Source: a virus
Strand: one strand, 5' to 3'
IMG/VR virus record: IMGVR_UViG_3300006810_000317
Span: 1 to 26,693 of that record
Length of the DNA: 26,693 nucleotides
Shown: positions 24,740-26,693 of the stretch, piece by piece
Numbering within the stretch: the first letter of the stretch is position 1
Layout: each line of letters opens with the position of its first letter
Program-made: the position numbers and the translations under genes
The notes under the pieces: generated by a model
Told to the model about the DNA's origin: nothing
The model's database searches: none
Seen by the model: only the letters and a program-made list of their open reading frames with translations

Positions 24740-26299
24740 ATGAAGAACGGACGTTGCCCTGCAGGTCAATATTACTGTTATACCAATAAGGAATGTAGAC
24801 CCATTCCTGCTGGTTTTATGGTGGACCCTAAAGGTATGCTCCGTAAAGAAAATGGTGCGACTATTGATGAAGCAAATAAAAGTGGAGACTCATCACTCCG
24901 CGATTGGTTTAGTAAGAGTAAATCATCTGACGGAAAACCTGGTTGGGTTCAGTTAGGTGGTAAATATGCAGGTAAACCCTGTGCTAGACAACCAGGTCAA
25001 ACCACAAAACCAAAGTGCGGTTCTAGTAAGATGAAACGCAATCTTTCCAAATCAGAGGAAGATGCAGCGTTCCGTCGTAAGAATCGTCAAGATCCGAATC
25101 CAGATAGAAAAGGGAAGGCAATTAACGTGAAGACTGAAGAATTTACAACCTTACCTCTTGAAGTTGAGATTCCTAATAACATTAGAGACTTCAATCTTGG
25201 ACTCATGTTCCGTGAAAGTCTGGATACTAATAGTGGAATGCTGTTCATCTTTGATGAAGTTGCAGAACAGTCCTTCCATATGACGGAAACAAGAATTCCT
25301 CTTGACATTGCTTTCATCACAGAGGAAGGTATCATTGAAAGCATCAAAGAATTAGAACCATTTGACGAGAATCCAGTTGCTTCGGATGGAGAAGTACTGT
25401 GTGCGTTAGAAGTAAACCGTGGATGGTTCGCAGAAAATAATGTAGAAGTTGGTGATGAAATTGACATTGTAGAAGGCGAAAAAGATGCCTGCTACCATAA
25501 AGTCAAGTCACGTTATTCAGTTTGGCCAAGTGCATATGCGTCAGGAGCATTGGTCAAATGTAGAAAAGTTGGTGCGAAGAACTGGGGAAATAAAACCAAA
25601 AAAGAAGAATTTGAACTTGATGAAAAGTGCTGGAAAGGTTATGAAAAGAAAGGTATGAAGACCATGTTTGGGAAGAGATATCCTAACTGTGTCAAAAAAG
25701 AAGCAGTTGAGTGTAATCACACCGATAATGGAGTTGAATGTCCTGTACATGGAATGTCACCATGCAAATCTGCACCAAAGGGTGGAGATGGTGGAAAACC
25801 AGGTGCAGATAAAAACTATGTCAAACCAATGGCAGAAGCAGTGAGACTTCCTGCTAAGACTGGTAATATTATTGCAGCATCTCTTAACTGGAGAGGAAGA
25901 TATTATATCCTTAGAATGTTCTTCCCACAGACTAACAAACCAACTAAAACTGAAGTACAACTTCAGATAGACAAAGTATATCCTGGCGCAAGAGTACAAA
26001 GTTACCACGCGACCGATTATGTCCCAGGACAACCACTACTCCAAGTTGCAGAAGGAGCAGCATGGACTAGGAAAGCAGGAAAAAACAAAGAGGGTGGACT
26101 CAACGAAAAAGGCAGAAAGTCTTACGAAAGAGAAAATCCAGGCAGCGACCTTAAGGCACCTTCAAAGAAGGTTGGAAATCCCCGCAGGGCATCCTTTTGC
26201 GCCAGAATGAAGGGAATGAAGAAGAAACTCACCTCTTCCAAAACTGCAAACGATCCCGATAGCAGAATCAACAAATCACTTAGAGCTTGGAACTGCTGA
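24740..26299 (+). CDS. Multidomain DUF192-containing phage protein
   Basis: 519 aa, basic, and assembled from several small units. Residues 1-40 are Cys-rich (RCPAGQYYCYTNKECRPIPA). Residues 52-125 hold SLRDWFSKS, GWVQLGGKYAGKPCARQPGQ and a KPKCGSSKMKRNLS basic tract. About 138-246 is a DUF192-like domain (LGLMFRES, GMLFIFDE, FHMTETRIPLDIAFITEEG, a CALEVNRGWF strand, VGDEIDI). About 256-325 holds SRYSVWPSAYASGALVKCRK and a CWKGYEKKGMKTMFGKRYPN block. At 325-342 a Cys/His cluster (CNHTDNGVECPVHGMSPC) could bind zinc. At 371-438 is a domain shared with the next gene. At 440-519 is a Lys/Arg-rich tail (WTRKAGKNKEGGLNEKGRKS, then PRRASFCARMKGM and SLRAWNC) common in phage proteins of unknown function. 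No enzymatic activity can be assigned. A head-internal or DNA-associated role is possible from the basic charge but unproven. Confidence 0.8.
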   Translation: MKNGRCPAGQYYCYTNKECRPIPAGFMVDPKGMLRKENGATIDEANKSGDSSLRDWFSKSKSSDGKPGWVQLGGKYAGKPCARQPGQTTKPKCGSSKMKRNLSKSEEDAAFRRKNRQDPNPDRKGKAINVKTEEFTTLPLEVEIPNNIRDFNLGLMFRESLDTNSGMLFIFDEVAEQSFHMTETRIPLDIAFITEEGIIESIKELEPFDENPVASDGEVLCALEVNRGWFAENNVEVGDEIDIVEGEKDACYHKVKSRYSVWPSAYASGALVKCRKVGAKNWGNKTKKEEFELDEKCWKGYEKKGMKTMFGKRYPNCVKKEAVECNHTDNGVECPVHGMSPCKSAPKGGDGGKPGADKNYVKPMAEAVRLPAKTGNIIAASLNWRGRYYILRMFFPQTNKPTKTEVQLQIDKVYPGARVQSYHATDYVPGQPLLQVAEGAAWTRKAGKNKEGGLNEKGRKSYERENPGSDLKAPSKKVGNPRRASFCARMKGMKKKLTSSKTANDPDSRINKSLRAWNC

Positions 26300-26300
26300 T

Positions 26301-26621
26301 ATGAAAAGTTTTCAACAATTTATGTCAGAGTCGGTCAATATCTCTGGCGATTTCAACGGAACATTAGTTATCAATAATTCTGAGGAAAACTCAGAACCTA
26401 TTGGCGAATCTTATTTTGCGGATATTGTTTGGGAAGGAAAAATTTATAGGATGGAATTTGAAGGAAATATAATTTCCAAAAATGATTTAACAGAAGCACT
26501 GCAAGGAGAATATCCTGGTGCCATTGTCCATAACATTTATCCAGTATCGGAACAAAAAAGTACTTTAAAAATTAAAAGCACACAAAGATATCAACCAGAA
26601 AAATTAACTTGGGGTGAATAG
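26301..26621 (+). CDS. 106-aa protein with capsid-targeting-like N-terminus and a domain shared with its neighbour
   Basis: The N-terminus MKSFQQFMSES closely resembles the capsid-targeting sequence of T4 internal head proteins (MKTYQEFIAEA), which the prohead protease gp21 cuts after the Glu. Here the equivalent cut would be after E10. A second site of the (I/L)-x-E type, IGE|S at residues 34-36, lies just before the conserved part. Residues 37-87 (ADIVWEGKIYRMEFEG, then EYPGAIVHNIYPV) align with residues 371-438 of the protein encoded just upstream. The ATG follows that gene's stop after 1 nt, and gp17 starts 3 nt after its own stop. A small protein packaged in the head and perhaps injected is a reasonable inference. 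It could instead be a soluble accessory protein. Confidence 0.72.
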   Translation: MKSFQQFMSESVNISGDFNGTLVINNSEENSEPIGESYFADIVWEGKIYRMEFEGNIISKNDLTEALQGEYPGAIVHNIYPVSEQKSTLKIKSTQRYQPEKLTWGE

Positions 26622-26624
26622 TGA

Positions 26625-26693
26625 ATGGCTCAGTGGAATAAGAATACACAAGATTATTTAAACCAGGAAAGAACACTTCATGAAGTTTTTATG
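26625..26693 (+). CDS. 17: Large terminase subunit gp17, N-terminal 23 codons (cut by window end)
   Basis: The ATG at 26625 starts an open frame through the last base, giving MAQWNKNTQDYLNQERTLHE and then VFM. This resembles the N-termini of cyanophage large terminases as I remember them, and a large terminase is expected downstream of gp16 in this gene order. The ATPase and nuclease motifs lie outside the window, so the call rests on the short N-terminus and context. A G-rich stretch at 26611-26617 (GGGGTGA) can serve as the ribosome binding site. A GTG at 26621 is in another frame and is not the start. Confidence 0.7.
   Translation, partial: MAQWNKNTQDYLNQERTLHEVFM

What the first reader, a model, noticed from the sequence alone, without database searches (positions are those of the whole stretch)
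26301..26410. Capsid-targeting-like leader on the 106-aa protein
Seen: MKSFQQFMSES matches the layout M-K-(T/S)-(Y/F)-Q-x-F-(I/M)-x-E of the T4 internal-protein leader MKTYQEFIAEA. The Glu at position 10 fits the gp21-type cut (I/L-x-E), with M in place of I/L. A second such site (IGE|S, residues 34-36) sits right at the border of the conserved domain. Known: T4 IPI-IPIII carry this leader, are cut by gp21, packaged and injected. Inference: this is a packaged, possibly injected effector with a mature form starting at residue 11 or 37.
Basis: partly seen in the sequence, partly recalled or inferred. Interest (0 to 1): 0.63.

Follow-up and report, generated by a model that had tools for sequence, protein, structure and literature searches.

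The report
Capsid-packing tag on a cyanophage protein
A small protein of a virus of marine cyanobacteria begins with the same ten-residue tag that coliphage T4 uses to load proteins into its head for delivery into the cell, and related viruses carry the tag on many unrelated proteins, which gives a way to list what they may inject.

Summary
The ORF at 26301-26621 encodes 106 aa (phrog_1742, unknown function) and starts MKSFQQFMSES. The leader is conserved at protein level in all 38 aligned homologues. M1, F7 and E10 are invariant, residue 4 is F/Y and residue 8 is L/I/M. Published T4 IPIII work maps targeting to residues 4 and 7 and processing to 8 and 10. Chance is excluded: S-SCSM1 has 2 strict leaders against 0.005 expected, and the other sits on the cytidylyltransferase found in its virions. 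Virion-detected cytidylyltransferases of S-SM1 and S-SZBM1 start with the leader or a one-residue-shorter form. Among IMG/VR loci fetched by the leader, 130 leader ORFs fall into 48 sequence-unrelated groups. Cyanophage major capsid proteins keep an L-x-E|A site like gp23's, so an E10 cut is plausible. Not supported: a second cut at residues 34-36 (37 of 38 homologues lack I/L there). Against packaging: neither of two published virion proteomes reports this family. It is also acidic, unlike the basic T4 internal proteins. Verdict: most likely a T4-type capsid-targeting leader on a low-copy head protein; injection and effector role are inferred only. Known kind; apparently undescribed in cyanophages.

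The parts
26301..26621 (+). 106-aa protein, phrog_1742 family, unknown function; starts 1 base after the stop of the upstream gene
   Evidence: ORF list; phrog_1742 E 1.2e-39 over residues 1-105; tblastn hits in 156 phage records, 135 of them over at least 80% of the query, mostly cyanophages
26301..26330 (+). leader MKSFQQFMSE (residues 1-10), capsid-targeting-like
   Evidence: conserved in 38/38 aligned homologues with synonymous codon change; same layout as T4 ipII/ipIII
26328..26333 (+). predicted prohead-protease cut between E10 and S11 (M-S-E|S)
   Evidence: P3 is L/I in 34/38 and M in 4/38; E10 invariant; cyanophage major capsid proteins keep FLAE|A or ILTE|A like T4 gp23 FLTE|A
26331..26372 (+). 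conserved segment residues 11-24 (SVNISGDFNGTLVI), no confident predicted structure
   Evidence: mean majority-residue fraction 0.85; pLDDT under 50
26400..26411 (+). claimed second site IGE|S (residues 34-37); E36 invariant but L/I-x-E not conserved
26409..26543 (+). folded core, residues 37-81, strand-strand-helix-strand
   Evidence: AlphaFold2 models
24740..26299 (+). upstream 519-aa protein (phrog_727; DUF192 and DUF6321 domains); the gene at the same position in S-SCSM1 (SSCSM1_29) is a mass-spectrometry virion protein; no leader here
25877..26002 (+). second copy of the strand-strand-helix-strand domain inside the upstream protein
   Evidence: hhalign E 0.00068, probability 27%; phrog_1742 E 0.0085; domain HMM hits in upstream genes of about 24 loci
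26625..26693 (+). start of the next gene (MAQWNKNTQDYLNQERTLHEVFM...), cut by the window end; same start as the gene following the homologue in S-SRM01
   Evidence: sequence; S-SRM01 gene starts MAQWNKNEQDYLNQERTLFEV

Best explanation
The first ten residues are a T4-type capsid-targeting leader. During head assembly the leader would bind the prohead core scaffold (targeting residues F4 and F7). The protein would be enclosed, and the gp21-type prohead protease would cut after E10 (recognition residues M8 and E10), freeing a 96-residue mature protein. That protein would stay in the head at low copy number and leave with the DNA at infection. Shown here: the leader, its conservation at exactly those positions, its presence on many unrelated proteins, one of which (cytidylyltransferase) is detected in virions, and retention of an L-x-E|A site in the cyanophage capsid protein. 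Inferred: scaffold binding, cutting, packaging and injection of this particular protein. What the mature strand-strand-helix-strand domain does is unknown; a role on a host or core-protein target by protein-protein contact is a guess.
For: Leader conserved in 38/38 homologues. All phage relatives in the spread listing, apart from the weak partial hits (P1-like phages and S-PRM1), align from query residue 1. T4 leaders confirmed from sequence. T4 IPIII experiments: the first 10 residues suffice, targeting at 4 and 7, processing at 8 and 10 (PMC9026906). S-SCSM1: only two strict leaders in the genome, this family and the virion-detected NMNAT MKSFLQFLKEA (PMC9602691). S-SM1 cytidyltransferase GC190 starts MKKFSAFLNEA and GC190 was detected in its virion (PMC3037559). 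S-SZBM1 cytidylyltransferase starts MRFRQFIIEA and was detected. 130 leader ORFs fall into 48 unrelated groups. 12 of 80 leader loci carry more than one leader ORF, five in a row in L175. Capsid proteins keep a gp23-like L-x-E|A site. A gp21-family protease is present in 6 of 8 long contigs holding the family.
Against: The homologue is not annotated as a virion protein in S-SCSM1 (45 detected proteins, several of 61-93 aa) nor listed for S-SZBM1 (30 proteins), although usable tryptic peptides exist. The mature protein is acidic (pI 4.6; family median 4.8) while T4 IPI-III are basic (pI 9.0-9.7). The segment just after the cut is as conserved as the leader (0.85 against 0.84), so conservation alone does not mark a discarded propeptide. 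The window record ends before genes 21-23, so the protease of this phage was not seen.
Confidence: 0.7

Rival explanations
1. The leader targets the protein to the prohead core, but the protein works only in assembly, as a minor core or scaffold helper, and is lost or degraded before the virion is mature.
For: Absence from two virion proteomes with a leader that still looks functional. T4 IPIII itself aids head assembly (PMC9026906). The gene lies among head and packaging genes, between terminase subunits.
Against: Leader-bearing cytidylyltransferases do stay in virions. Low copy number also explains the missing peptides.
Confidence: 0.2
2. The N-terminus is a short amphipathic docking helix for another partner, and the protein acts in the infected cell and is never packaged.
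For: No virion peptides in two studies; acidic protein.
Against: It would not explain why the same start, with Glu at 10 and I/L/M at 8, is on dozens of unrelated proteins, on virion-detected enzymes and on T4 internal proteins.
Confidence: 0.08
3. It is an ordinary structural protein of the head or neck surface whose N-terminus resembles the T4 leader by chance.
For: Neighbours are virion proteins, and the domain also occurs inside the upstream protein, whose S-SCSM1 counterpart is in virions.
Against: Chance expectation is 0.005 strict leaders per genome, and the family itself is the one not seen in virions.
Confidence: 0.02

Closest known systems
T4 internal proteins IPI, IPII, IPIII with their capsid targeting sequence
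   Same: Start MK(S/T)(F/Y)xxF(I/L/M)xE(S/A); size about 100 aa for IPI and IPII; Glu at residue 10 (IPII, IPIII); same leader on unrelated bodies.
   Different: No similarity after the leader was apparent; acidic instead of basic; located between the terminase genes instead of next to e or 57B; not detected in two cyanophage virion proteomes; no activity known.
Cyanophage virion-associated cytidylyltransferase / NMNAT (T4-GC190, phrog_395)
   Same: Starts with the same leader in S-SCSM1 and S-SM1 and with a one-residue-shorter form in S-SZBM1.
   Different: Enzyme of about 360-420 aa, detected in virions; no relation after the leader.
phrog_727 (DUF192/DUF6321) cyanophage virion proteins
   Same: Contain a copy of the same strand-strand-helix-strand domain; some relatives carry the leader (S-SZBM1_192, L104, L118).
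   Different: Long multidomain proteins; the copy in this window has no leader.

Membership tests
T4-type capsid-targeting (CTS) internal proteins | N-terminal 10-residue leader with aromatic at 4 and 7, I/L-type residue at 8 and Glu at 10 | tested here: met
   38/38 homologues; M at 8 in this window and 3 others
T4-type capsid-targeting (CTS) internal proteins | Same leader on otherwise unrelated proteins of one phage group | tested here: met
   48 unrelated clusters; two in the S-SCSM1 genome
T4-type capsid-targeting (CTS) internal proteins | Prohead protease of the gp21 family and its L/I-x-E site in the same phages | tested here: met
   PF03420 in 6 of 8 contigs; FLAE|A and ILTE|A in cyanophage capsid proteins. 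Cutting itself not seen; protease not in this window.
T4-type capsid-targeting (CTS) internal proteins | Present in the mature virion | tested here: inconclusive
   Not annotated or listed in two published virion proteomes; depth of both is limited
T4-type capsid-targeting (CTS) internal proteins | Basic mature protein | tested here: not met
   pI 4.6 here against 9.0-9.7 for T4 IPs; a property of the T4 examples, not of the leader
T4-type capsid-targeting (CTS) internal proteins | Cut after residue 10 and injected with DNA | not testable with these tools
   Needs N-terminal peptides and an injection assay
T7 Gp2 / RNA polymerase epsilon (YkzG) fold | Significant structural match over the domain | tested here: inconclusive
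   Foldseek E 0.16-0.28, VIA Z 4.5, 49 residues, rmsd 2.5; below trust level
phrog_1742 | Match to the family profile over full length | tested here: met
   E 1.2e-39, residues 1-105, profile 1-106/108

The most novel reading that the evidence does not exclude
Marine T4-like phages use a shared packing tag to load dozens of unrelated proteins into the head, and this one is an acidic, injected protein with a Gp2/epsilon-like fold that binds host RNA polymerase at the very start of infection.
Probability: 0.06. Interest if true: 0.8.

Novelty: new member of a known kind. Interest (0 to 1): 0.5.

Why it matters
What cyanophages inject with their DNA is largely unknown. A ten-residue tag that can be read from sequence gives a candidate list: dozens of unrelated proteins, among them a cytidylyltransferase repeatedly found in virions without an explanation of how it gets there. 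It also carries the T4 tool of packing foreign proteins by leader fusion to a group of very abundant ocean phages, as a testable prediction.

Tried and rejected
Chance resemblance: rejected by shuffles. Second gp21 site at residues 34-36: rejected as a conserved site. Known family or defence counterpart: no Pfam match and no PADLOC match. Weak hits in P1-like phages (E 7-8, 28% over half the length) were judged chance. PDB sequence search: only matches above E 0.5. Fold searches in the PDB: nothing significant; T7 Gp2 and YkzG lead the lists but a small strand-strand-helix-strand unit matches many proteins. In BFVD the best hit is the S-T4 homologue, and DUF6321 cyanophage proteins and the S-SCSM1 virion protein also appear. 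No paper in the held library mentions both cyanophage and capsid targeting except a T4 review whose only cyanophage mention is a cited title, and none prints such leader strings.

Full report
What is there. The window is a 26,693-base virus record from a T4-like cyanophage: it holds gp13- and gp14-like neck proteins, gp15, terminase small subunit and tail-fibre-like genes, and its nearest DNA matches are mostly Synechococcus phages such as SynMITS9220M01 and Bellamy. The ORF at 26301-26621 follows the stop of a 519-aa gene by one base and encodes 106 aa. It belongs to phrog_1742, unknown function, over its full length.

The leader is real and under protein-level selection. In 38 homologues from phage records and IMG/VR contigs the first ten residues read MK(S)(F/Y)xxF(L/I/M)xE, with M1, F7 and E10 invariant. 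Codons 3-11 vary synonymously. The T4 genes read here start MKTYQEFIAEA (ipII, ipIII) and MKTFKEFTST (ipI). According to the review of Black's work (PMC9026906), ten residues of IPIII suffice for packaging, residues 4 and 7 carry targeting and residues 8 and 10 carry processing. These are the positions kept in the cyanophage family.

Beyond chance. In the complete S-SCSM1 genome only two ATG starts match the strict pattern, against 0.005 expected from shuffles; one internal match occurs in 66,532 residues. The two are this family and the NMNAT-like cytidylyltransferase. In 617 kb around the family, nine further leader ORFs appear (0.4 expected), all cytidylyltransferase relatives by their shared sequence. 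Among loci fetched by a leader DNA pattern, 130 leader ORFs fall into 48 groups without similarity after the leader. The extra leaders in the same loci (12 of 80 loci with two or more, five in a row in L175) are mostly not explained by that choice.

Link to the virion. NMNAT of S-SCSM1 (MKSFLQFLKEA) was detected in purified virions (PMC9602691). GC190 of S-SM1, detected in virions (PMC3037559), starts MKKFSAFLNEA. S-SZBM1_140, detected (PMC9146016), starts MRFRQFIIEA, one residue shorter. Cyanophage capsid proteins keep GSFLAE|A or GILTE|A where T4 gp23 has GSFLTE|A. A gp21-family protease lies in 6 of 8 long contigs that hold the family.

Evidence that does not fit. SSCSM1_30, the homologue, is labelled hypothetical while its neighbours 29 and 31 and proteins of 61-93 aa are labelled virion proteins. 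SSZBM1_191 is missing from the S-SZBM1 table while 190 and 195 are present. Predicted tryptic peptides are available in both. The mature form is acidic. The most economical reading is low copy number, but loss before maturation is not excluded.

The second site. E36 is invariant, and the predicted folded core starts at residue 37. But only the window itself among the 38 has I or L at residue 34; V is commonest. The T4 rule is L/I-x-E (PMC9026906). A cut there is therefore not predicted for the family.

The mature domain. AlphaFold2 gives strand-strand-helix-strand for residues 37-81, with low confidence elsewhere. A related domain sits in the upstream 519-aa protein (window 25877-26002), whose positional counterpart in S-SCSM1 is a virion protein, and in leader-bearing DUF5661 proteins such as L104. 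Fold comparison puts T7 Gp2 and the RNA polymerase epsilon subunit YkzG near the top, at non-significant levels. That is a lead only.

Conclusion. It works, most likely, like a T4 internal protein in its packing step. Membership is met for the leader, for its use on unrelated proteins and for the presence of the protease family; presence in the virion is inconclusive; cutting and injection are untested. That T4 Ip1-3 are injected inhibitors of type IV restriction enzymes (PMC12373910) makes an anti-defence role a reasonable guess, no more. The kind is known; its spread in cyanophages appears undescribed in the held literature.

Noticed in passing
L175:6505-9422 (- strand): Five leader-bearing ORFs of 119-275 aa in about 3 kb with unrelated bodies, like an island of internal-protein genes.
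   Followed up: partly
L121:3736-4149 and L113:10529-11047: Leader-bearing proteins with a YHGT start motif that suggests an ADP-ribosyltransferase or RNA 2'-phosphotransferase relative (weak phrog_5470 match for L121 only).
   Followed up: partly
L124:2436-3041: Leader-bearing protein with weak HAD-phosphatase matches (DUF2608 E 8.5e-07).
   Followed up: no
window 24740-26299: 519-aa protein joins DUF192, the strand-strand-helix-strand domain and DUF6321; in S-SZBM1 the gene at this position is a 165-aa form that begins with the leader.
   Followed up: partly
L004:7591-8001 (S-SRM01): An endonuclease VII-type gene sits directly before the family gene, in place of the usual upstream protein.
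   Followed up: no
window 26331-26372: Residues 11-24 (consensus SVNIAGDFNGNLYI) are as conserved as the leader but have no confident predicted structure; role unexplained.
   Followed up: no
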